Shown here one piece after another: positions 1-11,459 of a DNA stretch of 11,697 bases. The first letter of the stretch is position 1. The number at the start of each line of letters is the position of its first letter. The translations under genes were made by a program, and so were the position numbers. Source of the DNA: an uncultured Verrucomicrobiota bacterium. Lineage in GTDB: Bacteria; Verrucomicrobiota; Kiritimatiellia; RFP12; UBA1067. The notes under the pieces are model-generated. The model did no database searches. It was not told the DNA's origin and was given only the letters and a program-made list of their open reading frames with translations. The DNA lies in the NCBI GenBank assembly GCA_945483525.1, contig CALYRV010000059.1, positions 1-11,697 of the forward strand, in the 5' to 3' direction.

Positions 1-678
1 CGGAATCGTCGCGCCGTGCTTAGGATCGCCGATGCCGACCGTGAAGATCGGAATGCCACGTTTCTTCGCATACGCCGCGCTGTCGAGCGCCTCGCCACGG
101 AGATCTCCGCCGTCGGAGATGATAATGATCGCGTTATGATCGTCCGCCGCGGGGTCCAGCGTCTTCAGGGATTCGCGGATGGCGCTGCCGAGATCGGTCT
201 CGCCGCGCGGAGCGGAATCGGGAGTCATCTGTTCGAGGGCGCTCCGAAGATAGCCGTGATCCGTAGTAAGCGGACAGATCGTGACGCCGGTCCGGCGAAA
301 CGCCACCAGTGCACAGCGGTCGCTTTCCAGCGAGTCGATGAGGTCCGCGACATCGGCCTTCGCGCGCTCGAGCCGACTGGGGCGCACGTCTTCGGCGAGC
401 ATCGACCGCGAGACGTCGATCGCGACGACGACGTTACGGCTCTTCTGGACGAACTTCTCCGTCGACTTGCCCCACTGGGGACGTGATGCCGCAAAGAGCG
501 ATAGGAAGAGTCCGATCAGAATCGCCGCAGTCTGAAGACCAGACGTCTTCGACTTCGGCACGTTCAGCGTGATCTTCCGAAGCGCCTTCTCGCGCCGTGC
601 CTTGAGAAACGACCACCACAGCCCCGCGATCGGAACGATCGCGACAAGCGCCAGCATCAATGGATAGGCGAAACGCAT
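1..678 (-). CDS. BatB-like VWA-domain membrane protein, C-terminus cut off by window edge
   Basis: The minus-strand frame opens with ATG at 678-676 and stays open to base 1, giving 226 residues without a stop, so the gene is partial. Seen: a hydrophobic segment at about residues 5-23, a basic stretch (KARREKALRK), a second hydrophobic segment at about 49-64, then a von Willebrand factor A domain from about residue 82. The MIDAS metal site is intact: D88-x-S90-x-S92 (AIDVSRSM), T161 in GETDLGSAI, and D189 in IIISDGGD. The order of membrane anchor then VWA, and the phrase SRSMLAEDVRPSRLERAK, are typical of the BatA/BatB family (named for Bacteroides aerotolerance operons), whose VWA domain faces the periplasm. 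The exact role in this family is unsettled. The usual upstream partners (MoxR ATPase, DUF58 protein, BatA) are not present before it; an RNA methyltransferase gene is. No clear Shine-Dalgarno precedes the ATG; a heptad array lies there instead. Confidence 0.85.
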   Translation of the reverse strand, partial: MRFAYPLMLALVAIVPIAGLWWSFLKARREKALRKITLNVPKSKTSGLQTAAILIGLFLSLFAASRPQWGKSTEKFVQKSRNVVVAIDVSRSMLAEDVRPSRLERAKADVADLIDSLESDRCALVAFRRTGVTICPLTTDHGYLRSALEQMTPDSAPRGETDLGSAIRESLKTLDPAADDHNAIIIISDGGDLRGEALDSAAYAKKRGIPIFTVGIGDPKHGATIP

Positions 679-684
679 GAGAGA

Positions 685-713
685 TAGGTTTTAGGTTTTA
701 GGTCGAGGTCGAC
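685..713. repeat. Degenerate heptad array R1 (unit TAGGTTT on + strand)
   Basis: Two identical heptads TAGGTTT, at 685-691 and 692-698, are followed by TAGGTCG (699-705) and a related AGGTCGA-type remainder. The array lies between the stop of the RNA methyltransferase gene (732) and the ATG of the BatB-like gene (678), taking up over half of the 53-bp gap. Confidence 0.7.
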
Positions 714-731
714 AGCGGACGAATGTTATGG

Positions 732-1589
732 TTAGTGATCATGGGCGCCTTCGCCATGCCAGGGGATGAAGGCGGGGACGGTGTCGATGCCGGCGGCAAT
801 GCGCTGACGGACGGCCTCGTAGACGAGAATCGTCGCCGCGGCGGAGACGTTGAGGGAGTCCGCAAGACCGAGCATCGGGATGCGCACGCGAAGTTCCGCG
901 CCGTCCATCCATTTCGCGGTGAGTCCGTACTGTTCCGCGCCGAGCGCGATCGCAACATTGCCTGTGAGATCGACTTCGAAGTGCAGCTTCTCGGCGTGCG
1001 GCGTCGCCGCGAGGATCTTGAAGCCGTGTTCCTTAAGAAACGCAAGCGCCTCTTCGGACGACGCCTCGACGATCGGCACCGAGAACATCGTGCCGGTCGA
1101 GGCCCGCACCACGTTCGGATTGTGAATGTCGGTCGTGCGGTCGCAGACGATCACCGCGGCGACTTTCGCGGCGTCCGCGGAGCGGAGGATCGTCCCGAGA
1201 TTGCCGGGCTTCTCGATCGCCTCGGTGACGATCACAAGCGCGTTTTCGGGGAGCTTCAAGTCCGAAAGCCTGATCGAGACATGCGGACCGATCATGAGGA
1301 GTCCGTCAGGACGCTCCTTATAGGCGATCTTCTCGAAGCAGACCTTGGAGCAGGTATAGACCTCGGCGCCCGCCTTTTTCGCATCCGCGATCAGCTGCGG
1401 CTCGTTCTCGTTCTTGAGGTAGAAGTCGGGACAGTGGAAGATCGCGTGCGGACGGTATCCGAGGTCCAGCGCCCGGCGGCATTCGCGATAACCCTCGACG
1501 ATCATCTCGCCCGAGGCTTCGCGCGTCGAACAGCTCCTGAGCTTGACGACGTACTTCAGTTTCGGATTACTGGGAGATGTAATATCCAT
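732..1589 (-). CDS. TrmH/SpoU-family RNA 2'-O-ribose methyltransferase
   Basis: A 285-residue SPOUT-class methyltransferase predicted to transfer a methyl group from S-adenosylmethionine to a ribose 2'-OH in rRNA or tRNA, in the cytoplasm. An N-terminal substrate-binding region (about 1-100, with the typical start ITSPSNPKLKYVVKLRS and VEGYRECRRAL) precedes the knotted catalytic domain. The three SpoU motifs are all visible: motif 1 around E123-A140 with N130 and R136 (GNLGTILRSADA), motif 2 GAEQYGL at 217-223, and motif 3 at about 237-263 (IPMLGLADSLNVSAA...). NPNVVRASTGTMF at 157-169 is also typical. The layout is closest to the RlmB/TsnR-like group, but the target nucleotide cannot be told from sequence. 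ATG at 1589 is preceded by a purine-rich stretch with GGAAG close to the start, partly made by the heptad array in the gap. The upstream gene ends 34 bp away, suggesting co-transcription. Confidence 0.88.
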   Translation of the reverse strand: MDITSPSNPKLKYVVKLRSCSTREASGEMIVEGYRECRRALDLGYRPHAIFHCPDFYLKNENEPQLIADAKKAGAEVYTCSKVCFEKIAYKERPDGLLMIGPHVSIRLSDLKLPENALVIVTEAIEKPGNLGTILRSADAAKVAAVIVCDRTTDIHNPNVVRASTGTMFSVPIVEASSEEALAFLKEHGFKILAATPHAEKLHFEVDLTGNVAIALGAEQYGLTAKWMDGAELRVRIPMLGLADSLNVSAAATILVYEAVRQRIAAGIDTVPAFIPWHGEGAHDH

Positions 1590-1601
1590 AACTTCCGTTT
1601 C

Positions 1602-1629
1602 CTACCAACTACCCTCTACCAACTCACTT
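1602..1629. repeat. Degenerate heptad array R2 (unit CTACCAA on + strand)
   Basis: Four contiguous 7-bp units: CTACCAA, CTACCCT, CTACCAA and a diverged CTCACTT. The first and third are identical. The array covers nearly all of the gap between the esterase and methyltransferase genes, and its last unit contains the esterase stop codon (1624-1626). Confidence 0.78.
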
Positions 1630-3144
1630 CGTCTCGAACGGACCCAGCGGCAGACTCGCCTCATTGAAGAGATTGCCCATCGTCTTATTCTTGCCCAGGT
1701 AACGGACCCTTACCGGTTCTTCAACCCCCTCAGCTACGAGCACGAGATCGACCCCCTTGATCTCTCCACACTGCCACGGCTGACGATTCGCCTCGTTGAC
1801 GAGTTTCGCATCCTTCCAGACACCGTCCTTGCCGGCGAGTTCGAACGGCGGCTCATGCCAGAAATCGGCATCGTACGCATACCAGCTCTTCACGTGATCG
1901 AACTTGAGCGTCGCCTTGCCGTCCGCGAAGGCAACGGACCTAAGCACCGGCGAATCGTCCTCGGGGATGTTGAATCCGTAATCACGCTTCAGCGCATGCA
2001 CGACGAGACGCTTGGCGACGATCTCCTTGCGGTTCGGATGGATATCGGAGAAGTTGCCGACGTCCGCAGTGACCGCGATCGCGGCGTTCTTCTCTTCGGA
2101 GACGAACTTGTTCTGCGCTTGGACGATGTTCATCCAGTTCTGTTCCCAGGGGGCGAGCTGGACGAAGTAGAGCTTCAAGTCGGGATTCTGAAACGCGCGC
2201 GACCAGCCGTTGTAGAGCGCATGCATCTTAAGCGCGTAGATGTCGCCCTCACCGTGGTTGGAACAGCCCTGATACCAGATGAAGCCGCGCATCGCCATCG
2301 GCGTGAAGGCGTCGACCATTGCATTCCAGAGGACGGTCGGCTGCTTGTGGGCCGCGGAAACCGGATCCTTCTTGTCGGTCTCGGCCTTCCAGTCCTTCTT
2401 CAGCTTGTAGTCGGCGAGCCACTTGATCTCCGGCGCACAATCGTCCCAGCCGCAGCGCGGGATGAAACAGTCGATGTTCACGCCGCCCCAGCTCGCGTCG
2501 ACGATGCCGACCGGAATGCCAAGAGCGAGATAGAGCTCACGAGCGTAGTAGAATGCTACAGCGGAGAGCGAATTGTGATTCGTCCTTCCCGAGCCTGTCT
2601 TAGCGACGCAGAAGGACTGCAGATCCTCCGGAATGAACTTGCGCCATCTCGCCGAGATAGGTTCCGGCTCGACGGACCAGTTGCGCGGCACCTTAACGTA
2701 ACGGACATTCGGAAGACGCGTCATCGTGGTCATGAGTCCGCCCTCGAAGTCGCGATAGCGGCAGGCACTGCCCCAGATCGGACACTCCATGTTGCTCTGT
2801 CCCGACGCGAACCACACCTCGCCGACGAGCACATCCTTGACCTCGACCGTCTCCTTGGCGGGGAAAAGGCGGCCGAACAGAATGCTGTCGTACGTCTTCA
2901 CCGTCACCGTCATCGTGCGCGATTCGGCCGACGCCTCCATCGGATCGAGATCGACACGCCAGCGACCAGAGGGGTCGACGGCGGAAGACTTCTCCTGTCC
3001 CGCGAACTCGACGACGACATCGCGCGCGATCTTGCTCGGCCCGCAATCGCCCCACACTGGCACCTTCATCCCGCGTTGGAGCACCGAGCCATCGGTGAAC
3101 GGCGCGCCTAATGTGATCGCGGCAAGAAAAGCGCTAATGAGCAT
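1624..3144 (-). CDS. Sialate O-acetylesterase-like SGNH hydrolase (SASA domain), probably exported
   Basis: A 506-residue protein of the sialate O-acetylesterase family, whose known members remove O-acetyl groups from sialic acids and, in many bacterial relatives, from other acetylated glycans. An N-terminal beta-sandwich (PFTDGSVLQRGMKVPVWG, residues 15-32) precedes the SGNH hydrolase core. The predicted catalytic residues are Ser117 in WFASGQSNME and the D367-I-H369 pair in SDIHPNRK. The block that usually reads WYQGESN is WYQGCSN here (290-296), with Cys294 replacing Glu. FVQLAPWE (327-334) is typical. The N-terminus is short and hydrophobic (MLISAFLAAITLGA) and could be a signal peptide, though it lacks the usual basic residues. 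ATG 3144 is well supported: GGAGG (3154-3150) lies five bases upstream. Acetylated-glycan processing fits a mucin- or plant-glycan-rich habitat, but the flanking genes give no substrate. Confidence 0.87.
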   Translation of the reverse strand: MLISAFLAAITLGAPFTDGSVLQRGMKVPVWGDCGPSKIARDVVVEFAGQEKSSAVDPSGRWRVDLDPMEASAESRTMTVTVKTYDSILFGRLFPAKETVEVKDVLVGEVWFASGQSNMECPIWGSACRYRDFEGGLMTTMTRLPNVRYVKVPRNWSVEPEPISARWRKFIPEDLQSFCVAKTGSGRTNHNSLSAVAFYYARELYLALGIPVGIVDASWGGVNIDCFIPRCGWDDCAPEIKWLADYKLKKDWKAETDKKDPVSAAHKQPTVLWNAMVDAFTPMAMRGFIWYQGCSNHGEGDIYALKMHALYNGWSRAFQNPDLKLYFVQLAPWEQNWMNIVQAQNKFVSEEKNAAIAVTADVGNFSDIHPNRKEIVAKRLVVHALKRDYGFNIPEDDSPVLRSVAFADGKATLKFDHVKSWYAYDADFWHEPPFELAGKDGVWKDAKLVNEANRQPWQCGEIKGVDLVLVAEGVEEPVRVRYLGKNKTMGNLFNEASLPLGPFETK

Positions 3145-3149
3145 AATTA

Positions 3150-3154
3150 CCTCC
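3150..3154 (-). promoter_or_regulatory. Strong Shine-Dalgarno of the esterase gene
   Basis: GGAGG on the minus strand, five bases before ATG 3144. It stands out because two neighbouring genes (threonine synthase and the prolyl isomerase) have no comparable site. It sits just downstream of heptad array R3. Confidence 0.75.
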
Positions 3155-3159
3155 GCAAT

Positions 3160-3194
3160 TTTTCACTCTTCACTTTTCACTCTTCACTTCACTC
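3160..3194. repeat. Degenerate heptad array R3 (alternating TTTTCAC / TCTTCAC)
   Basis: Four units in exact 7-bp phase alternate in an ABAB pattern: TTTTCAC (3160), TCTTCAC (3167), TTTTCAC (3174), TCTTCAC (3181). A shifted TTCACTC follows (3188-3194). The array spans most of the 48-bp gap between the prolyl isomerase and the esterase, and its end overlaps the isomerase stop codon (3193-3195). Confidence 0.82.
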
Positions 3195-4119
3195 AGTGAT
3201 GGCATCCGCAATGACACTCGTGATCTTTGCCGTGCTCGTGCTTGCCGCAGCATTCGCGGAATTCGATCTTCGCCTTCTCGCGGAGTTCGGCGACGAACGC
3301 ATCCATCGCACGTCCGCGGTTCTCGTGACGCATAAGATCCTTGATCTGATCGTGCACATCGACGAGCGTGAGCTGTCCACCGCCCTTCTCGTCTGCCTTA
3401 TAGATGATGTGGTAGCCGAACTGAGTGGTGACGACGCCGGAAATCTCGCCCTTCTTCATCTCGAAGGCGACCTTGTCGAATTCCGGAACCATCATGCCGC
3501 GTCCGAACCAGCCGAGAGAACCGCCTTCCTGACCCGAGGGACAATCCGAGTTCTTCTTCGCCTCTTCCGCAAAATCGGCCTGGCCGGAGACGATGCGTTC
3601 GCGGATATCCTTGATCTTATCGAGCGCCTTGTCATCAGCTCCTTTCACGAGGATGTGCTGACAGAGAACCTTGGGCTCTTCAACATATTCCGCCTTGTGG
3701 GCTTCATAGAACGCCGCGACCTCCTCTTCGGTCGGATCGGAAATATGCGCACAAGCCTGATTGACGAGCATATTGACGCGCGCACCCTTTTCGAGTTCCT
3801 TGCGGAAGTTCGCTTCGGAAATGCCCTGCGCCTCGAGCGCCTTCTTGTAATTCTCTTCGCCTCCGATCTGGGACTTCACCCGCTCGACTTCGGCGTCGAC
3901 ATCGGCGGCGGTGACTGGGAGCTCGATCTCCAGCGCGCGGTCCAGCAGGAGCTTCGCGCCGATCGCCTGGTCAAGCGCCTTCTCTTCAAGCTTGGCGAGA
4001 TTCCTCTTAACCTCATCCATGGTCATGCCATGCGACATATAGAATCGGACGAGCCGATCGAGTTCAAACTGCACGGCTTCGCCGCTGATTTCCTGTCCGT
4101 TGACTATTGCGTGTTTCAT
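3193..4119 (-). CDS. PpiC-type (parvulin) peptidyl-prolyl isomerase, cytoplasmic, with Cys/His-rich C-terminal tail
   Basis: A 308-residue SurA/PpiC-like chaperone-isomerase expected to catalyse cis-trans isomerisation of X-Pro bonds. A helical SurA-N-like region occupies about residues 10-125. The rotamase domain covers about 148-242 and carries family landmarks: VLCQHILVK (151-159), FAEEAKKNSDCPSGQEGGSLGWFGRG (183-208), MVPEFDKVAFEMKKGEISGVV (210-230), and TQFGYHIIY (232-240). There is no signal peptide or membrane segment, unlike SurA, PrsA or PpiD, so a cytoplasmic site is inferred. The last 19 residues (290-308) hold five Cys and six His, ending ECHCGCHH, which looks like a metal-binding tail. 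ATG 4119 encodes MKHAIVNGQ, a normal start for NifM/PpiC-like proteins. No Shine-Dalgarno is visible; array R4 occupies the leader. The threonine synthase gene ends 45 bp upstream, suggesting co-transcription. Confidence 0.88.
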   Translation of the reverse strand: MKHAIVNGQEISGEAVQFELDRLVRFYMSHGMTMDEVKRNLAKLEEKALDQAIGAKLLLDRALEIELPVTAADVDAEVERVKSQIGGEENYKKALEAQGISEANFRKELEKGARVNMLVNQACAHISDPTEEEVAAFYEAHKAEYVEEPKVLCQHILVKGADDKALDKIKDIRERIVSGQADFAEEAKKNSDCPSGQEGGSLGWFGRGMMVPEFDKVAFEMKKGEISGVVTTQFGYHIIYKADEKGGGQLTLVDVHDQIKDLMRHENRGRAMDAFVAELREKAKIEFRECCGKHEHGKDHECHCGCHH

Positions 4120-4124
4120 AAATC

Positions 4125-4162
4125 AAGTTGGAGTTAAGAGTTGGAGTTGGAGAGCGGAGCGG
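4125..4162. repeat. Degenerate 6/7-bp array R4 (unit AGTTGG/AGTTAAG)
   Basis: Successive units start with AG: AAGTTGG, AGTTAAG, AGTTGG, AGTTGG, AGAGCGG, AGCGG. Unit length wavers between 5 and 7, so this is less regular than R2, R3 or R6. It fills essentially the whole gap between threonine synthase (stop at 4165) and the prolyl isomerase (ATG at 4119). Confidence 0.65.
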
Positions 4163-4164
4163 AA

Positions 4165-5631
4165 TCAGAAGAGTCGAGTCACTTCGGCGTCGATCTTGTC
4201 GACGTCGCAGACACGAGTCTGGGCGATCGGAAGCGACTCGAGATCCCTGAAGTTCGTCGGCGGGTCGGTGAGGACATCCGCACCGAACGCGCGAAGGCAC
4301 GTCTCGGGGAACTTGTACGGCGTCGCGGTAGCCGCGACGACGACGGGAAGAGAAGCGTTGCAGTTTGAAGTTGAAGTTGAAGAATGGAGAGTTCCACTTT
4401 GATACTTCTTGGCGACGAAAGTGGCGACGGCGGTATGCGGATCGACGAGGTAATTCGCGGCCTCGCGCATACGCCGCATTTCGCCTTCGGTCTCTTCGGG
4501 AGTCGCGACGCCGCCTTCGAAGTCCGCAAAGAGCTTCGCCTTCGCCTTCTCGTTCAGCTCGTAACGTCCCTTCTCCTTAAGGTCCTTCATGAGCCGGCTC
4601 ACTTCAGCACACGCCGCGGCGACATCGCCGTCGTAATTGAGCATCCAGAGGAGACGCTCGACGTTGGACGAGATGCGGATATCCATTGACGGCGAATTGG
4701 TGACCGTGAACCTGTCGCCGGGATCGTAGACGCCGGTCTTGACAAAGCGCGCGAGGACGTCGTTCACGTTCGAGGCGACGACGAGCCTGCGGATCGGCGA
4801 GCCAAGCTTCTTCGCGTAATATGCCGCGAGGATGTTGCCGAAGTTGCCGGACGGAACGACGACGTCGAAACTCGTGGCTCGCGATTCGTGGTCCGCGGCT
4901 CGTGCGGAAAGCCTCGCGCCGGCGAGGACATAGTAGGCGATCTGGGGAACGAGCCGCCCGGTGTTGATCGAGTTCGCGGAGGAGAGCGTGATACCGGCCT
5001 TGGCGGCGGCGGCGTTGATCTCCTTTGAAGCGAAGATGCGCTTCACGGCGGCCTGGGCGTCGTCGAAATTGCCGCGGATACCGACGGCATGAACGTTCGC
5101 TTCGGACGGCGTGGTCATCTGGAGCTTCTGGATGCGGCTCGTACCGGTCGCGGGATAGAAGACGATGATCTCGGTGCCGTCCACGCCGGCGAAGCCCTGC
5201 ATCGCGGCCGAACCGGTATCGCCGCTCGTCGCGGTGAGGATCAAGACGCGTTTGCCGTTCGCGGCATGGCGCATGAAGACGGGAAGCATGGAAAGCGCGA
5301 CGTCCTTGAACGCGCCAGTCTTGCCGAGGAAGAGCTCGAGAATGTGGAGCCCGTCCTTCTCGACCAGCGGAATCGGATCGCCGGCAGGGAAGCGGCTCAA
5401 GAGGCGGTCGATCGCATCCTTGCGGACAGATTCCGGGAAGTCGCCGAACAGCGCGTCACAGACGAAACGCTCAGCATCCCCGAGTGTCTTGACATTTGAA
5501 ATCTGAGATTTGAACTCTGCATTTCCGTCCGTGAGGACGGGGAGAAAGAGTCCGCCGTCGGGGGCGAGACCCTGGAAGACGCTTTCCGGAGCGGTGGCCG
5601 GAATACCGGTACGGGTAGATACGAATTTCAT
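4165..5631 (-). CDS. thrC: Threonine synthase carrying three repeat-derived segments
   Basis: PLP enzyme converting O-phosphohomoserine to threonine, the last step of threonine synthesis, in the cytoplasm. With the start at ATG 5631 it has 488 residues. Seen: MKFVSTR plus GLAPDGGLFLP (21-31), typical of the family N-terminus; the PLP-binding Lys109 in GAFKDVALS; SGDTGSAAMQGF (136-147); NSINTGRLVPQIAYY (220-234); the phosphate-binding loop SGNFGN (261-266); and DPHTAVA followed by ATATPYKFPE near the end. An in-frame TTG six bases upstream is less likely than the ATG because family members begin MKFVSTR. Three stretches, about residues 38-47, 243-254 and 411-425, are encoded by tandem arrays and lie between conserved blocks, probably in surface loops. 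A consensus extended -10 lies 16 bases before the ATG and no Shine-Dalgarno is seen, implying a leader of about 9-10 nt. It is probably the first gene of the left run. Confidence 0.95.
   Translation of the reverse strand: MKFVSTRTGIPATAPESVFQGLAPDGGLFLPVLTDGNAEFKSQISNVKTLGDAERFVCDALFGDFPESVRKDAIDRLLSRFPAGDPIPLVEKDGLHILELFLGKTGAFKDVALSMLPVFMRHAANGKRVLILTATSGDTGSAAMQGFAGVDGTEIIVFYPATGTSRIQKLQMTTPSEANVHAVGIRGNFDDAQAAVKRIFASKEINAAAAKAGITLSSANSINTGRLVPQIAYYVLAGARLSARAADHESRATSFDVVVPSGNFGNILAAYYAKKLGSPIRRLVVASNVNDVLARFVKTGVYDPGDRFTVTNSPSMDIRISSNVERLLWMLNYDGDVAAACAEVSRLMKDLKEKGRYELNEKAKAKLFADFEGGVATPEETEGEMRRMREAANYLVDPHTAVATFVAKKYQSGTLHSSTSTSNCNASLPVVVAATATPYKFPETCLRAFGADVLTDPPTNFRDLESLPIAQTRVCDVDKIDAEVTRLF
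4357..4400. repeat. In-frame 6/7-bp array R5 inside threonine synthase
   Basis: Units GTTTGAA (4363-4369), GTTGAA, GTTGAA and then diverged GAATGGA and GAGTTCC. In the coding direction it gives a Ser/Thr/Asn-rich stretch (LHSSTSTSNCNA) between the conserved DPHTAVATFVAKK helix and the ATATPYKFPE block, where family members normally have a short link. Confidence 0.65.
4870..4904. repeat. In-frame perfect-phase heptad array R6 inside threonine synthase
   Basis: Five consecutive heptads, 35 bases, every one matching RYYCGYG: ACTCGTG, GCTCGCG, ATTCGTG, GTCCGCG, GCTCGTG at 4870, 4877, 4884, 4891 and 4898. Read in the coding direction it encodes about residues 243-254 (ARAADHESRATS), just before the conserved beta strand leading to SGNFGN. 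Confidence 0.82.
5491..5518. repeat. In-frame heptad array R7 inside threonine synthase
   Basis: Four consecutive heptads starting GA and ending T: GACATTT, GAAATCT, GAGATTT, GAACTCT, at 5491, 5498, 5505 and 5512, with a diverged GCATTT after. The array encodes about residues 38-47 (AEFKSQISNV), in the N-terminal domain after GLFLPVLTDG. Confidence 0.75.
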
Positions 5632-5647
5632 AAGCAAATTACACTAT

Positions 5648-5656
5648 ATTATATCA
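5648..5656 (-). promoter_or_regulatory. Extended -10 promoter for threonine synthase
   Basis: Minus-strand TGATATAAT: a full TATAAT (5653-5648) with a TGN extension. It overlaps the last codon and TAA stop of the upstream FolK-HD gene. No good -35 is found 16-18 bases upstream (GGACGC or similar), which extended -10 promoters tolerate. The predicted start of transcription is near 5641, about ten bases before ATG 5631. Confidence 0.6.
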
Positions 5657-6821
5657 CAAGATCGCAGATTGCGTCCGCCTCGTCTCCTCCCCCGATTTCA
5701 GAAAGAAACCGCCGTCTGAACGCGAGGTGATTTCGATCGCGACACAGCTGACGTGAAGTGGCGAAGTACATGCCAGAGATCATCCAGCCAACTTGGATAA
5801 GGACGAAGTCGGCGAGTGATCTGATGTTCTGATAATCGACAGGTCGACGGTCGCGTATCGCCTTGACGACCTCAGGATTCGGCGGAACTCCGCATTGTAG
5901 ATTCCAGAACGCCCGAGAATCATTACGCCAGTCCGTATGTTCAACCTGATCCTCCAACACCCGGAATATATCAAGCTTATCAGCATCACGGACGGTATTC
6001 GCGGCGATAGCAGTGAGCGGATCAAGCCCATCTGGCAGATCACGGCGGTTATGATAAAGGATTGCGGAAAGGATAACCGATTCCAGCGGACTGAACAGCT
6101 GATACGCCGGCAGATTCTTCAACCACCCCTGTTTCTTGACGATGTCATGCGAGAAAACGGCATGGTCAACCGACTCCGAGTCCTTGAAGGTATTATACCG
6201 CTGAAGCTGTTCGTAACGTCCGGTGTCATGCAACAACGCCGAAGCGACGGACACGAAGCGTTGTTCGTCGGTAAACCTCTCCCCAGCCGCTATCGCATCG
6301 GCGTTATCCACAACCATCCCCGTATGGACGTACTTCAACTGCATCATCCGCGGCAGATGTTCAAACGGATCGCGGAAGTTGCGTACATACAGTTCATAGT
6401 CGGCCTTAAGCTCGTCGAGCCAAATCTCGCGCAATGGTTCCATTACGAATTCGCGCTGAGAAGCGCGAGGATGTGGAAGCGTAAGCGCTGACTTCTCTAA
6501 CCTAAGATTTCCAAAGGTGATAAGATCAAGATCAATAGTGCGCGGACCATTCTTCACGCCTCGCACCCTTCCCAGATCATCCTCAATAGCGTGCATCATC
6601 CCCGAAAACTCATAAACATCCAGATCGGTCTCGAGGACGACAACCTGGTTCAGGAATTTTAGCGACGCGAAAAACGCCGGCACGTCTACGGGATCGGTTG
6701 TTCTAACCTTGCTCTTGCGAACCAGCTTCGTACTAGGTAAGGCCGCAAGCCGTTCCACCGCTTTGCGGAGATACTCCGCCTTCGGCTCGATGTTCGATCC
6801 TAAAGAAACTACTGCACGCAC
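5649..6821 (-). CDS. folK: Fused 6-hydroxymethyl-dihydropterin pyrophosphokinase (FolK) and HD-domain phosphohydrolase
   Basis: A 390-residue two-domain protein. Residues 1-160 form FolK (HPPK), which transfers pyrophosphate from ATP to 6-hydroxymethyl-7,8-dihydropterin in folate synthesis: VVSLGSN (4-10), the signature RVRGVKNGPRTIDLDLI (85-101) and LPHPR (115-119). Residues 160-375 form an HD-superfamily domain with candidate metal ligands H166 (YVHTG), H198-D199 (LLHDTGRYEQLQRYNTF), H220 (VDHAVFSHD), H257 (YHNRRD) and D279 or D281 (RDADKLD). Such domains hydrolyse phosphate esters. FolK alone is usually about 160 residues, so the HD half is a true fusion. The start is GTG 6821, giving (M)RAVVSLGSN directly; the frame continues further upstream only into the thioesterase gene. 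It begins seven bases after the thioesterase stop, so the two are one transcript. No strong Shine-Dalgarno is seen. The HD substrate is unknown. Confidence 0.88.
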   Translation of the reverse strand: MRAVVSLGSNIEPKAEYLRKAVERLAALPSTKLVRKSKVRTTDPVDVPAFFASLKFLNQVVVLETDLDVYEFSGMMHAIEDDLGRVRGVKNGPRTIDLDLITFGNLRLEKSALTLPHPRASQREFVMEPLREIWLDELKADYELYVRNFRDPFEHLPRMMQLKYVHTGMVVDNADAIAAGERFTDEQRFVSVASALLHDTGRYEQLQRYNTFKDSESVDHAVFSHDIVKKQGWLKNLPAYQLFSPLESVILSAILYHNRRDLPDGLDPLTAIAANTVRDADKLDIFRVLEDQVEHTDWRNDSRAFWNLQCGVPPNPEVVKAIRDRRPVDYQNIRSLADFVLIQVGWMISGMYFATSRQLCRDRNHLAFRRRFLSEIGGGDEADAICDLVI

Positions 6822-6828
6822 GGAGATC

Positions 6829-7259: not shown

Positions 7260-10200
7260 TCAGCGGAAGAGAATCATCAGGCCCTTGGGCGCGGCAGGAG
7301 GATTTGAGCTGAAGATTCGCAGTTCCGGATAATCTACGCCTCCGACCTTGCCGTCAACCCACGGCACGTAACCGTTCGCCTTTGCCCACGCATCCAGCAC
7401 CGCCCGTGCAGATGCACAGGTGTAATCACCGTCTGCCGCGGTCTTGCAACCATCGAAATTCGCGACCGCGCCGGCAGTATGTCCGACGAAACTCGCCGTC
7501 ATGAAGAATGAGTTTAGAGCACCATATCCGCATCTCGGAGCGACCGTCGCCTTCGGATTCGTGTTGAGATCGCCAACCCACTCGCCAGCATAGCCACCGT
7601 CGACGAGGACCGAAACCGCCGCGTAGTTCGCGCAATTCGTCGATATCACGAAAACATCTCCGTAGTCGGCATTGGCACTTACATAACCGACCTGGCCTCC
7701 CGCACAGGATCCACCGATGACCTCGCCGTAGTTCGCGCTATCCGTAATGAAGATCGGACGCTTGCCGTAAACATCATCAAGATACGCGGCGATTCCACCT
7801 GCTCCACCACCTGTTACCGTATAGGTCGCGCTCGCCGGTCTGCCGCCGATTCGACCCATGTTCTTACAACGAGAAATCGATATCGCTCCGAGACGATAGG
7901 TGTATCCGAAGATGCCGCCGTAATATACCTTCGGACCAGCCCCCTGCGAATCAATGTCTCCGTAATTCTCACAATCGACAATCGTCAAAGATCCGCAAAG
8001 CGTACCGCTGTTGACATTGCCTGTCCGGAACCCGACGATACCGGCGAAACGGCCCTCCGCCCCGTCAGCGTAAGTCGAGGTGATCCGACCGTAGTTCACG
8101 CAGTTGGAAACGATGATCTCCGGCTTTTGCACCGAACTCTGGCTGCTTGCTTCACCGATTATGCCGCCAAGCGACTGTCCGCCGGACGAGACCGTGACAA
8201 TGTCCGCACAGTTCGTGCAGGAAACAATCGACAGCAACATCAGATCATCACCGGTCCAGGCGTCGGACATGACCGTGCAGCCGGAGATTCCGCCAGCGGT
8301 TATGGAACGCACTGTGAGCGTGCAATTCGATTCGACAGAGCATTGCTCGATGATCGCGCCATCACCGGCAGCGCCGCAAATCACTCCGACCGCAACACCA
8401 GACGCGGAATTAGAAACCTTGACCGAATAGTTGCGCACGACCACGTTAGCGATTCTGCCGCCACGACAATCTATCGCAAGCATACCGAACCGACTGCTGA
8501 TATTATTGACGGAGGTCACGGATCCGTCATTGTCTCCGTCCAGGATAAAGTTTGCGAATCGTCCGGACAACTTCGCGACAATCGGAGCAGACCCATTGTA
8601 ATGAATCACATACCCGCTGCCATCAATCTGACTGACAAACTCGTCAACCGTCGTCCAATCGGATCGAAGCGCAACATCTCCGGTCAGACGATATGTAACC
8701 TCCGGATAAATCGCCGTCTTAAGCGCGTTCTCAAGTTCCTCGCCCGTCGAAACATCCTGCACAAGCTGAACATATGTCGCATGAACATCCAGATCTTCTA
8801 TGACATTGGAGAAATCCCCGTCCCATCCGGTGAAGAGATAACCATCGCGAACCGGGCTGGCAGGCGCCTCCGCTGGCTTGCCGTGTCCGACGAGCTGATC
8901 AGCGCCGATCTGCGATTCATCCCAGTCAAAGAAGCGAACCGTATGCTCGATCGTCCCGCTCATATAGACGGCCGTAATAACCGTATCAGAAGTCAAGTCC
9001 GAGAATGTTTCCGGAGACCACCCAGTAAAGGTGTATCCGTCATGCTCGGGCGTCGACGGCGGAATCGGAGTGCCGCCACGGAGAATGACGCATGTCTTAA
9101 GCACAACCAACTCGAAATCCTCGGCATCAACGAAAGTCGCCGTAATCGTATCTGGCGCCGCTTCATCCGCCATAATCTTGAGAATCGGCGTAGACGAGCC
9201 CTGCTTCCAAAGATTGCAGTCATCATTATACGCGTTGAGAGACTCGAGATCAGCACCGCTGACAAGCCCTTCCGAGGTTGCGGCATCAACATTCGATTCT
9301 GTAATCAATGTCGGAACCAAGGCGCCGGCGATCATGCCGCCGATAAGTGTATCCGACATGAATGCCGACCCTGAAATCGTAATGGACGGATAAGCAACCG
9401 TGGACTTGAGATATCCAATCGCCTGACCCGGCAGAAATCCATCGCGACTATTGGTGATCGTTCCACGATTAAACGACGACAGAATCGTATAACCGGTACA
9501 CGAGGACTGTGAGATATCGCCAATCAAGCCACCGGCATCCGTACCAGTTACGCTACCGAGATTTGCGCAACCGATCATAGCAAACGAATCCTTGATGATG
9601 GAATTCACCGAACCAACGACACCCCCGGCGGCTTTTGAGCCACCAGTATGCGAGATGTTTCCGTAATTCACGCAATCGACTATTTCCGCACCGCAGTTCT
9701 TGATGCCGGAAATGATGCCGCCCGTCTCGCTTTGAGGGCTCTTGACGGTAAGATTTCCATAGTTGACGCACCGAGCGATGCGAATGTTGCCGTTGATGCT
9801 GTCCGTGCCGCCCTCGGCATAGCGAACGACGCCGCCCAAATTGCCATTCGCACCGTTAGCCGCAGCACTCATGTAATTCGTGCAATCATAGACATTCACG
9901 TAGGCATGGTGGGTATATTTGGCCATCTTCGGATAGATGCCGTTAACGATTCCAGCCCCCTGGTTCGTCCAGTCATTAATCGTCAGCGTTCCGCGTGAAA
10001 CGCAATTGGAAATCGTAACCTCCGCGCCATCACCATTGGCGGTAACAGAACCGAAGAGACCGCCGACATACGCACCCGCGCGCACAGTCACCTTGCAGGA
10101 ATCGTCCATCGAGCAATTCGACAGCAGTGCCGTCGTCGCCGTCGTTAACTTCGCGACGACCATGCCGCCAGTCTTCGACTTCAACGACAGCGAGCAATTG

Positions 10201-10571
10201 ACAAAGGAGATGTTCTGAATGACAAACGACCCTTCCGTCATCGTCGTAGCAACAATGCCGATATCCGCCGTTTCCGACGAAACAGCCGCCCCGCTGACAA
10301 CGAGATTCTTAATCGTCGCGTTTCCACTGACAGTTCCGAAGAGCGGCACCGTCAGCCCCGTAATCGTCTTCCCGTCGCCATCGAGCGTGCCGGAGAAGGC
10401 ACAGGTCGTCCACCCAGTGCAGTCGATATCCGCCGTAAGCTTGATATCATCTGTTGCCGCGCCGGTAATCGCCACGGCAAGTTCTTTGGCGGTCGCGACC
10501 TCAGTCGCAGCGCGGAGAGTGAACGACACAACCGCCACAATCGCGGCGAACAGCAACGACAGTTTCTTCAT
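7260..10571 (-). CDS. Large secreted Cys-rich beta-helix protein (GLUG-like) with two InlB_B repeats
   Basis: An 1103-residue exported protein of unknown function. A clear Sec signal peptide (MKKLSLLFAAIVAVVSFTLRA, cleavage near residue 21-22) is followed by two similar modules. Module 1 (about 24-466) and module 2 (about 604-1086) each open with an 'xxAxEL..AL....Y/IxLTxDxxL' stretch and a D-G-x-G-(K/Y)-x-I turn, followed by right-handed beta-helix coils. Each module carries six coils with a C-x-N-x-G-x-(I/L/V)-type signature, such as DCVNYGNIS and NCVNYGRIT; in one copy per module Ser replaces Cys (near residues 366 and 945). Gly-Gly-hydrophobic-Gly turns (GGLFGS, GGVVGS, GGIIGE) resemble GLUG/peptidase-G2-type adhesin coils. 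Between the modules lie two Listeria-Bacteroides (InlB_B/Flg_new) repeats, about 475-537 and 542-601, ending in TFTGWSP and LFTGWDGDFSN. The C-terminus is PPAAPKGLMILFR. A surface or extracellular adhesive role is inferred. ATG 10571 has GGAG at 10580-10577. Confidence 0.85.
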   Translation of the reverse strand: MKKLSLLFAAIVAVVSFTLRAATEVATAKELAVAITGAATDDIKLTADIDCTGWTTCAFSGTLDGDGKTITGLTVPLFGTVSGNATIKNLVVSGAAVSSETADIGIVATTMTEGSFVIQNISFVNCSLSLKSKTGGMVVAKLTTATTALLSNCSMDDSCKVTVRAGAYVGGLFGSVTANGDGAEVTISNCVSRGTLTINDWTNQGAGIVNGIYPKMAKYTHHAYVNVYDCTNYMSAAANGANGNLGGVVRYAEGGTDSINGNIRIARCVNYGNLTVKSPQSETGGIISGIKNCGAEIVDCVNYGNISHTGGSKAAGGVVGSVNSIIKDSFAMIGCANLGSVTGTDAGGLIGDISQSSCTGYTILSSFNRGTITNSRDGFLPGQAIGYLKSTVAYPSITISGSAFMSDTLIGGMIAGALVPTLITESNVDAATSEGLVSGADLESLNAYNDDCNLWKQGSSTPILKIMADEAAPDTITATFVDAEDFELVVLKTCVILRGGTPIPPSTPEHDGYTFTGWSPETFSDLTSDTVITAVYMSGTIEHTVRFFDWDESQIGADQLVGHGKPAEAPASPVRDGYLFTGWDGDFSNVIEDLDVHATYVQLVQDVSTGEELENALKTAIYPEVTYRLTGDVALRSDWTTVDEFVSQIDGSGYVIHYNGSAPIVAKLSGRFANFILDGDNDGSVTSVNNISSRFGMLAIDCRGGRIANVVVRNYSVKVSNSASGVAVGVICGAAGDGAIIEQCSVESNCTLTVRSITAGGISGCTVMSDAWTGDDLMLLSIVSCTNCADIVTVSSGGQSLGGIIGEASSQSSVQKPEIIVSNCVNYGRITSTYADGAEGRFAGIVGFRTGNVNSGTLCGSLTIVDCENYGDIDSQGAGPKVYYGGIFGYTYRLGAISISRCKNMGRIGGRPASATYTVTGGGAGGIAAYLDDVYGKRPIFITDSANYGEVIGGSCAGGQVGYVSANADYGDVFVISTNCANYAAVSVLVDGGYAGEWVGDLNTNPKATVAPRCGYGALNSFFMTASFVGHTAGAVANFDGCKTAADGDYTCASARAVLDAWAKANGYVPWVDGKVGGVDYPELRIFSSNPPAAPKGLMILFR

Positions 10572-10698: not shown

Positions 10699-11109
10699 CT
10701 ACTGCTTGAACGGATTGATGACCACCATTCCGCGATACATCTGCCCAGCGTTGAGATCTTCGCTGACAATCTCGTTACAACCCAGTCGCTCCGCCGCCGA
10801 AACAATCAGCGCATCGTAAAACTGGATTCCATATTCCTCAGCGACATACAATGCATGCCTGACAAGATCATAGGTAACATCAATAGCCCAAAGATCCCTG
10901 AAATAATCAAGCAGCGCATCCAGTTTCTCCCGCGGCAAGCCGAGTTTACGTTTGGCAACACAACAGAACTCCTGTATTACCTGCGTGGAAACGACCCCAT
11001 CCCGATTTATAGTCATCGCGTGAGCGATCAACTCCTTAGCGATCGTCTGACGACGCGGATCAGCGTCATCAACCGCATAAATCAAAACGTTCGAATCGAA
11101 GAATCTCAT
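10699..11109 (-). CDS. PIN-domain (VapC-like) ribonuclease toxin
   Basis: A 136-residue PIN-domain protein, the usual size for VapC toxins, which are Mg2+/Mn2+-dependent RNases that cut specific RNAs and stop growth when freed from the antitoxin. The acidic catalytic residues can be placed: D5 (FFDSNVLIYA), E47 (STQVIQEF), D99 (IQFYDALIVSAA) and D118 (VSEDLN). Hydrophobic beta strands surround them in the normal order. The ATG at 11109 overlaps the antitoxin stop by four bases (ATGA), the standard sign of translational coupling. It looks intact. Nothing here indicates which RNA it cuts. A solitary metabolic PIN nuclease is unlikely given the overlapping antitoxin. Confidence 0.9.
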   Translation of the reverse strand: MRFFDSNVLIYAVDDADPRRQTIAKELIAHAMTINRDGVVSTQVIQEFCCVAKRKLGLPREKLDALLDYFRDLWAIDVTYDLVRHALYVAEEYGIQFYDALIVSAAERLGCNEIVSEDLNAGQMYRGMVVINPFKQ

Positions 11110-11459
11110 TTCGCGCTCCCCGATTCACGGAAATTGGCGTCATCGCGGCTGAACTGATAAGGCGTGCTTCTGCCTGACTTCGGCAACGACTCGATCAGAC
11201 GCCGGAACTCGGATGCGCGGCGAGCACGAAACTTTGACTCCTCGTCATCCTCCGCAAACGTCCTCACATTGCCATTCCAACGCGACATTCCCGCCGCCAT
11301 CATCTGATTGCCAACCGCAAAAGGAATCCCTCCGCTGGCAGCAACCGCACAAATAAAGATATTCACCGCCGCCGAAGTCGTAAGACCAACCTCGTCAAAC
11401 ACCTTCTCGGCCGCTTTCCTTTTTTCACTATCCACTCTCGCCGTAATCATCGTCGTCAT
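11106..11459 (-). CDS. RelB/DinJ-family antitoxin with extended C-terminus
   Basis: A 117-residue protein whose first 50 residues are a textbook RelB/DinJ ribbon-helix-helix domain: TARVDSEKRKAAEKVFDEVGL (6-26) then TTSAAVNIFICAVAASGGIPFAV (27-49). This domain dimerises and binds the operator of its own operon. DinJ proteins are usually near 85-90 residues; here the polar, charged tail (about 53-117) is longer and would be the part that wraps and blocks the toxin. The partner is a PIN toxin rather than the RelE/YafQ type normally encoded beside DinJ. ATG 11459 is favoured by AGGAGG at 11469-11464, four bases upstream; an in-frame ATG three codons later is a weaker alternative. An operator-like palindrome overlaps the promoter, suggesting autorepression. 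Confidence 0.88.
   Translation of the reverse strand: MTTMITARVDSEKRKAAEKVFDEVGLTTSAAVNIFICAVAASGGIPFAVGNQMMAAGMSRWNGNVRTFAEDDEESKFRARRASEFRRLIESLPKSGRSTPYQFSRDDANFRESGSAK

What the first reader, a model, noticed from the sequence alone, without database searches (positions are those of the whole stretch)
685..4162. Every stop-to-start gap in the left gene run is filled by a different short heptad-type array
All four gaps between the five left-hand genes (679-731, 1590-1623, 3145-3192, 4120-4164) hold one degenerate tandem array with a period of 7 bp (6/7 in R4). The unit sequence differs each time (TAGGTTT; CTACCAA; TTTTCAC/TCTTCAC; AGTTGG-type), but unit length and total length (about 28-38 bp) are alike, and two arrays run into the upstream stop codon. 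The three short gaps in the right half lack them. Shared period without shared sequence argues against an ordinary dispersed repeat family, and alternating ABAB units argue against simple recent slippage. They recall the heptameter STRR repeats described in filamentous cyanobacteria, but the units seen here are different and diverse. A process that generates period-7 DNA at gene junctions, or a role as translational spacers or leaders, are both possible.
Basis: partly seen in the sequence, partly recalled or inferred. Interest (0 to 1): 0.82.

Follow-up and report, generated by a model that had tools for sequence, protein, structure and literature searches.

The report
Seven-base repeats filling operon junctions
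Short stretches of DNA that repeat about every seven bases sit between neighbouring genes of this gut bacterium; in related and even distant bacteria the same kind of repeat brackets a tiny gene known from insertions in ribosomal RNA, so they may be traces of a little-studied mobile element.

Summary
Three of four gaps hold significant period-7/14 arrays; the fourth is a 6/7 mixture. Three array-like stretches, one of them weak, also lie in frame inside thrC. It is a trait of the clade: in relative G003, 13 of 156 co-directional gaps hold lag-7 arrays (shuffled 0.6); E. coli K-12 has 0 of 124 gaps. Of 77 distinct instances of the window's junctions in relatives, 43 are at most 10 nt; of 23 longer than 30 nt, 14 hold a period-7/8 array.

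Main new result: arrays of this kind, as inverted pairs, bracket PF05635 (S23) genes in the clade and on cyanobacterial and Gemmatimonadota plasmids. PF13366 genes instead have mostly period-9 arrays. The S23 units resemble the 23S rRNA intervening sequence (IVS) in size, stem and ORF.

Best reading: the window's arrays are solitary relics or half-elements of an S23/IVS-type element, later changed unit by unit. Against it: genomes without a PF05635 hit have at least as many solitary arrays, and no heptad full-to-solo series was caught. Slippage in unconstrained spacer remains a serious rival.

The parts
685..703 (-). Array in SpoU|VWA gap; sense strand ACCTAAA x2.7, C-rich, 28 nt after the SpoU stop and 6 nt before the VWA start
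   Evidence: (p=0.0002)
1601..1623 (-). Array in esterase|SpoU gap; sense GTTGGTAGAGGGTAGTTGGTAGG, G-rich, directly after the esterase stop
   Evidence: (lags 7/14 p=0.001)
3160..3192 (-). Array in PpiC|esterase gap; sense (GTGAAGA/GTGAAAA) alternating, G-rich, runs into the PpiC stop TGA
   Evidence: (p=0.0002)
4125..4152 (-). 6/7-nt mixed array in ThrC|PpiC gap; sense CTCCAACTCCAACTCTTAACTCCAACTT, C-rich, 5 nt before the PpiC start
   Evidence: (lag 7 alone p=0.07; lags 6/7/8/14 p=0.0015)
4363..4395 (-). In-frame array-like stretch (mostly period 6) inside thrC, coding HSSTSTSNCN
4870..4904 (-). In-frame stretch with weak period 7/14 inside thrC, in a loop that is 12 residues in 39 of 78 sequences
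   Evidence: p=0.034
5490..5524 (-). In-frame period-14 stretch inside thrC, coding EFKSQISNVK
   Evidence: p=0.0005
1..678 (-). VWA-domain protein (cut by window end)
   Evidence: PF13519
732..1589 (-). SpoU-family RNA methyltransferase
   Evidence: PF00588
1624..3144 (-). Sialate O-acetylesterase-like protein
   Evidence: PF03629
3193..4119 (-). PpiC-type peptidyl-prolyl isomerase
   Evidence: PF00639
4165..5637 (-). Threonine synthase
   Evidence: PF00291/PF14821

Best explanation
The window's arrays are solitary (half or decayed) copies of a repeat type that elsewhere forms the two inverted ends of a small mobile element. SHOWN in relatives: (i) inverted period-7/8 arrays often bracket PF05635 genes (S23, 23S-rRNA intervening-sequence protein, Avd-like), G-rich on the 5' side and C-rich on the 3' side, and can pair into a stem around a unit of about 0.4-0.7 kb; (ii) such units, and single arrays, sit between the stop and start of co-directional genes where other related species have a few to about 20 nt; (iii) single arrays share units with S23-flanking arrays of the same genome more than with those of other genomes; (iv) an orthologous array changes by a whole 7-bp unit. 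INFERRED: the S23 unit is an IVS-type element that inserts at operon junctions and, in frame, in tolerant protein loops, tolerated because its RNA can fold or be cut away; loss of the gene and one arm leaves a single array that then drifts by slippage; each junction has its own unit because it records a separate insertion.
For: Inverted pairs around PF05635: 13 of 20 genus loci, 8 of 29 phylum loci, 8 of 11 plasmid loci, against 0 of 23 spoU and 0 of 23 moxR control loci. Period by gene family: 73 of 79 arrays next to PF05635 are period 7/8; 15 of 20 next to PF13366 are period 9. Polarity: 5' arrays G-rich 35 of 38, 3' arrays C-rich or balanced 37 of 38. Size and stem: 20 chosen elements are 418-667 nt with on average 27 arm-to-arm pairs in the predicted fold, like the Coxiella IVS (428 nt, 28-bp stem, S23 ORF, tandem heptamers before it; PMC4990558, passages). 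Filled and empty sites: with a decay series for period 9 at MoxR|DUF58. Shared units: 19 of 57 against 31 of 367, permutation p=0.0025. All four window arrays fit 'G-rich next to the stop, C-rich next to the start'.
Against: Genomes with no PF05635 match have at least as many single arrays: 9 of 139 gaps against 4 of 152 in S23-rich genomes. G003 has 13 arrays in 400 kb but only a sub-threshold PF05635 match and no inverted pair in that sample. No full-to-solo series was caught for period 7. The position-by-polarity rule is not significant in 36 arrays of relatives (Fisher p=1). 21 of 29 phylum loci lack arrays on both sides. Shuffled arms still give 16.5 of the 27 arm pairs, so much of the stem follows from G-rich/C-rich composition. 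The window has no S23 gene and no inverted partner. An array-plus-inverse at the SpoU|VWA gap of G010 could not be shown to hold an S23 remnant.
Confidence: 0.48

Rival explanations
1. Replication slippage. Short repeats grow in unconstrained spacer just after stop codons, with a bias for 7-nt steps set by the polymerase; the arrays are neutral and have no element behind them.
For: Orthologous arrays differ by exactly 7 bp. 24 of 38 arrays start within -12..+6 nt of the upstream stop against 35% under random placement, where change is tolerated. Heptamers are the commonest long simple repeats in many genomes and a polymerase footprint was proposed (work of Mrazek et al. as reported in PMC4679880 section 3, and in PMC4692102 passages). 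Single arrays do not need S23.
Against: Junctions that abut in other relatives hold about 45-100 nt of array. Units are shared within a genome. Inverted pairs, fixed polarity and a period that depends on the bracketed gene family are not expected from slippage.
Confidence: 0.27
2. Arrays come first by an unknown copying process and serve as landing sites into which S23 and PF13366 genes insert.
For: Single arrays outnumber pairs in G003 (13 arrays, no inverted pair in 400 kb). At the pseudopilin junction the S23 unit's array motif GTTGAAA also occurs in the 17-nt spacer of G008/G010.
Against: Insertion into one array would leave the two sides in direct, not inverted, orientation; direct pairs were 1 of 20 genus loci (L142) and 1 of 11 plasmid loci (L287).
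Confidence: 0.12
3. The arrays are selected for a job: translational spacer or leader, protein-binding site, or a run of stop codons closing all frames after the gene.
For: They lie between tightly packed co-directional genes; the TAACTGA repeats of Beggiatoaceae were proposed as translational control sites (PMC4679880, abstract and passages).
Against: 43 of 77 orthologous junction instances are at most 10 nt with no room for one; unit, length and strand polarity vary; similar stretches occur in frame inside thrC.
Confidence: 0.08

Closest known systems
23S rRNA intervening sequence (IVS) with S23 ORF (Coxiella burnetii; PMC4990558, passages read)
   Same: As the S23 units of relatives: S23 ORF, inverted ends forming a stem, about 0.4-0.7 kb, tandem heptamers by the ORF that vary in number among strains
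   Different: Lies in 23S rRNA, not between protein genes; the window itself has no S23 gene and no inverted pair
TAACTGA direct repeats of Beggiatoaceae, some Cyanobacteria and Bacteroidetes (PMC4679880; abstract, introduction and passages read)
   Same: Heptanucleotide, mostly intergenic, some running over the end of the upstream ORF
   Different: One fixed unit that sits just before start codons; window units are several and degenerate, and two arrays lie at the stop
GGGAATC / GGGGAYT heptamers of Xanthomonas and Nostoc (PMC4692102; two sections and passages read)
   Same: Degenerate heptamers close to the upstream ORF, some over its stop; 70-75 inverted pairs per Xanthomonas genome; length varies between species
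   Different: One G-rich unit family per genome; the authors report no general link to insertion sequences or transposable elements and do not mention S23
STRR heptanucleotide repeats of filamentous cyanobacteria (recalled; PMC4692102 mentions three tandem heptanucleotides in Calothrix)
   Same: Period 7, several unit types
   Different: Unit sequences were not in any call, so not compared
MITE and REP/RAYT elements (recalled)
   Same: Small inverted-end elements near gene ends, with gene-bearing and gene-less forms
   Different: Ends here are tandem arrays with a locus-specific unit, not one conserved sequence; I did not look for a transposase

Membership tests
Intergenic heptamer arrays (STRR/TAACTGA/GGGAATC-like, as a broad class) | Tandem 7-nt period beyond chance | tested here: met
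   Three of four gaps; the fourth is a 6/7 mixture with lag-7 p=0.07
TAACTGA repeats | Unit TAACTGA | tested here: not met
   Units are TAGGTTT, CTACCAA, TTTTCAC/TCTTCAC and AGTTGG types
STRR of cyanobacteria | Published STRR unit sequences | not tested
   No call gave the STRR sequences
IVS / S23 element | S23 (PF05635) ORF inside | tested here: not met
   None of the 10 window proteins scanned hits PF05635; present in relatives
IVS / S23 element | Inverted arrays on both sides | tested here: not met
   Each window gap holds one array; inverted pairs occur at S23 loci of relatives and plasmids
IVS / S23 element | Excision by RNase III | not testable with these tools
   Needs RNA; only pairing was predicted, for 20 elements of other genomes
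Slippage-type simple repeat | Copy number changes by whole units between close relatives | tested here: met
   In relatives, not in the window's own array: four species at SpoU|VWA, gaps 54/53/47/47 nt

The most novel reading that the evidence does not exclude
The scattered heptamer repeats of several phyla (those here, and those like STRR, TAACTGA or GGGAATC) are mainly ends and relics of one class of mobile element, in which the small gene inside sets the repeat period: an Avd-like S23 protein gives 7/8, a PDDEXK_3 protein gives 9. The unit is made anew or copied at each insertion, perhaps with a reverse transcriptase acting in trans, and the rRNA intervening sequence is the special case that landed in rRNA.
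Probability: 0.3. Interest if true: 0.9.

Novelty: new variant of a known kind. Interest (0 to 1): 0.7.

Why it matters
Heptamer repeats have been described piecemeal in cyanobacteria, Beggiatoaceae and Xanthomonas without an agreed origin, and how rRNA intervening sequences move is unclear (PMC4990558, passages). A shared anatomy would join the two and give a testable prediction: inverted period-7/8 arrays around S23 genes, period 9 around PDDEXK_3 genes. It would also account for fast turnover of operon spacers and of in-frame inserts in enzyme loops in uncultured gut bacteria.

Tried and rejected
Rejected: chance for three gaps. Rejected: one fixed unit for the window. Rejected: a quirk of this genome alone. 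Set aside as not significant: polarity by position in single arrays of relatives. Only suggestive: enrichment in co-directional over divergent plus convergent gaps, 23 of 401 against 3 of 115 and 13 of 156 against 0 of 20; I ran no test on these counts.

Led nowhere: the short peptide in the SpoU|VWA gap of G010 (L082) as an S23 remnant. Pfam, NCBIfam, a blastp against S23 ORFs of my loci and a plasmid tblastn gave nothing convincing; the likeness is recall only. Viral and metagenome contig scans were not used.

Literature: ten searches of the open-licence PMC library. In the listings and passages I saw, the only tie between S23 and heptamers is the Coxiella IVS (PMC4990558). I did not open most listed papers, so this is not proof that the link is unpublished.

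Limits: genes came from my own simple caller. An array is a maximal lag-p segment with match +1 and mismatch -2 and a cut-off of 8 to 15 that differs by call. The inverted-pair threshold was 0.25 shared 6-mers and 0.15. Regions sampled were picked by me, not at random. I used 12 of 27 plasmid records. MAGs are incomplete. No tree-based count of gains and losses and no structure prediction was made.
Full report
What the window is. Ten proteins on the minus strand were scanned with Pfam: VWA, SpoU methylase, sialate-esterase-like, PpiC, threonine synthase, HPPK plus HD, thioesterase, a large repeat protein, PIN and RelB. A genome-contig scan with ThrC gave 546 relatives, of which the best 80 were kept, mostly Kiritimatiellae/Verrucomicrobia/Lentisphaerae MAGs from guts, best identity 76%. 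The protein database holds ThrC at up to 90% besides the window's own. The window's genome is not held.

Is it real? For three gaps yes, at period 7/14. The fourth is a 6/7 mixture (lag 7 alone p=0.07; lags 6/7/8/14 p=0.0015). Three array-like stretches also lie in frame inside thrC (p=0.0005, 0.0007 and a weak 0.034). In the 80 loci, 23 of 401 co-directional gaps hold a lag-7 segment of score 10 or more against 0.4 in shuffles; lags 14 and 21 give 21 and 15 and the next highest, lag 8, gives 10; divergent and convergent gaps give 1 of 59 and 2 of 56. In 400-kb samples: relative G003, 13 of 156 co-directional gaps (shuffled 0.6) and 0 of 20 others; five S23-rich genomes, 4 of 152 (0.3); six genomes without a PF05635 match, 9 of 139 (0.1) plus 2 of 14 convergent gaps. 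In 200 kb of E. coli K-12, 0 of 124 gaps.

Where do they sit? Of 38 distinct arrays in co-directional gaps, 24 start within -12 to +6 nt of the upstream stop: 63%, against 35% for random placement and at most 58% in 2,000 trials.

The same junctions in relatives. The order thrC-ppiC-(esterase)-spoU-vwa recurs in a number of loci. Among 77 distinct junction instances with a gap of 400 nt or less, 43 are at most 10 nt, 11 are 11-30 nt and 23 are longer. Of those 23, 12 hold a period-7 array, 2 a period-8 array and 9 pass no threshold; none of the 54 short ones does. Ten instances over 400 nt were left out. Units differ: at thrC|ppiC the window has CCAACTC, L005 GACTAAC and L073 a CAACTTTT/CAACCTTT array. 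At SpoU|VWA four species share one array that differs by exactly 7 bp and by base changes, most of them A/G.

Inside thrC. One loop is 12 residues in 39 of 78 sequences (window and loci). Among proteins 88-90% identical to the window's, P0005, P0006, P0007 and P0009 have the short loop, while P0002, P0003, P0004 and P0008, like the window, carry longer and different ones. Some inserts repeat in a way that a heptad array would encode (NLQPSTFNLQPS in P0014). DNA was seen only for loci: L006 passed the lag-7 threshold there, L007 did not though its CCCAAAC units are visible.

The S23 link. Following a recalled resemblance I searched PF05635. It is over cut-off in 35 of 59 genus genomes and 199 of 288 phylum genomes, and in 0 of 14 control genomes. 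Period-7 segments are 48.7 per 100 kb in the 30 genus S23 loci against 7.0 in spoU loci, 4.5 in G003 and 3.6 in the thrC loci. Flanks were examined where complete. Genus, 20 of 30 loci: 16 with arrays on both sides, 13 inverted, 1 direct, 4 with none. Phylum, 29 of 30: 19 with any array, 8 on both sides, all 8 inverted. Controls: spoU, 23 of 31: 9 with any, 0 on both sides; moxR, 23 of 30: 6 with any, 4 on both sides, 0 inverted. On plasmids 27 records matched and I fetched 12; 11 had full flanks: 10 with arrays on both sides, 8 inverted, 1 direct, 1 under the threshold, and 1 locus with none. These are Cyanobacteria and one Gemmatimonadota record (period 8). A Bacteroidota record with a cut flank shows heptad-like arrays on both sides. 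Two of the cyanobacterial S23 genes lie between cas6 and cas4 and one between two ribonucleotide reductase genes.

A second family. PF13366 genes (over cut-off in 36 of 59 genus genomes, and 52 of 115 phylum genomes; 3 of 14 controls) have period-9 arrays: genus, 8 of 12 loci usable, 5 with any array, 3 on both sides, 7 of 8 arrays period 9; phylum, 26 loci usable, 10 with any array, 2 on both sides and inverted, 8 of 12 arrays period 9. Overall 73 of 79 arrays next to PF05635 are period 7/8 and 15 of 20 next to PF13366 are period 9. A period that goes with the gene inside is hard to get from slippage alone.

Polarity and stem. On the S23 strand the 5' array is G-rich in 35 of 38 and the 3' array C-rich or balanced in 37 of 38. 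Twenty elements chosen for arrays on both sides fold with 13-44 arm-to-arm pairs, mean 27.0; shuffling each arm leaves 16.5, so composition accounts for much of it; lengths are 418-667 nt. The Coxiella IVS is 428 nt with a 28-bp stem, an S23 ORF, two or three tandem GACAGAT units before the ORF depending on strain, and RNase III cutting at the first unit (PMC4990558, passages). PF05635 is said to resemble the Avd protein of diversity-generating retroelements (PMC10053308, passages); P0121 hits TIGR02436 and, below cut-off, the Avd model.

Filled, empty and decayed sites. After a pseudopilin-like gene 98-100% identical among six genomes, G004 carries an S23 unit (505-nt gap), G008 and G010 have 17 nt, and G003, G009 and G001 have what looks like one period-9 arm. 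At MoxR|DUF58 I read 30 fetched loci. Seven are -1 to +6 nt (L177, L185, L189, L192, L195, L196, L200). L174 has the S23 unit (501 nt). L201 has a 467-nt period-9 unit whose PF13366 gene is placed. L175, L180 and L181 have shorter versions with two period-9 arms by eye; L176, L179 and L182 have one arm by eye. L197 and L198 have a single heptad array, with units like those around the S23 gene of the same two genomes. The other 13 had other spacers or no DUF58 found next. This is a decay series for period 9; none was caught for period 7.

Shared units. In 8 genomes with S23 loci and sampled regions, 19 of 57 sampled arrays share at least 30% of 7-mers with an S23-flank array of the same genome, against 31 of 367 across genomes (two close sister pairs left out); permutation p=0.0025.

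Against the element reading. Genomes without a PF05635 match have at least as many single arrays; MAG gaps may hide genes, but G007 and G009 are 3.0 and 2.8 Mb. G003 (3.4 Mb) has many arrays and only a sub-threshold match. The window has no S23 gene and no inverted partner. The rule 'G-rich after the stop, C-rich before the start' fits the four window arrays, but in relatives 22 of 29 near-stop and 5 of 7 near-start arrays are G-rich (Fisher p=1).

Judgement. The window's arrays belong to a broad class of intergenic heptamer arrays. The tie between that class and inverted arrays around S23 genes is well supported in relatives and on plasmids. That the window's own arrays are relics of such an element is the likeliest single account but is not proven; unit-wise length change also acts on such arrays.

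Noticed in passing
window 10699-11459: PIN-domain protein (PF01850) overlapping a RelB-type antitoxin (PF04221) by 4 nt: a toxin-antitoxin-like pair of mixed type.
   Followed up: no
window 7260-10571: 1103-residue protein with weak Listeria-Bacteroides repeat, M26-N-terminal and pectate-lyase-like matches, probably secreted.
   Followed up: no
window 5649-6824: HPPK (folate synthesis) and HD domains in one reading frame.
   Followed up: no
L073 2662-2860 and the same place in L082: SpoU|VWA gap of G010 holds an array and its inverse around about 93 nt with a short open stretch (NAIVDKSKGFALIIV) that looks to me, by recall only, like an S23 start; searches gave no support.
   Followed up: partly
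L285, L287: S23 genes sit between cas6 and cas4 in two cyanobacterial plasmids; in L287 the two flanking arrays are in direct, not inverted, orientation.
   Followed up: partly
L002, L005, L015, thrC loop near residue 35-55: GC-rich palindrome-like inserts (GACGCCTCGGAGAGGCGTC type) lie in frame in thrC, unlike the heptads.
   Followed up: no
L110, L111, PpiC|SpoU gap: A longer repeat unit (about 46 nt, with GGCGAGCGTCCCCGCGA) fills this junction in two species.
   Followed up: no
L144 1313-1363 and 2231-2284: Arrays with the same unit as those of the adjacent S23 gene also lie inside the reading frames of the two neighbouring genes.
   Followed up: partly
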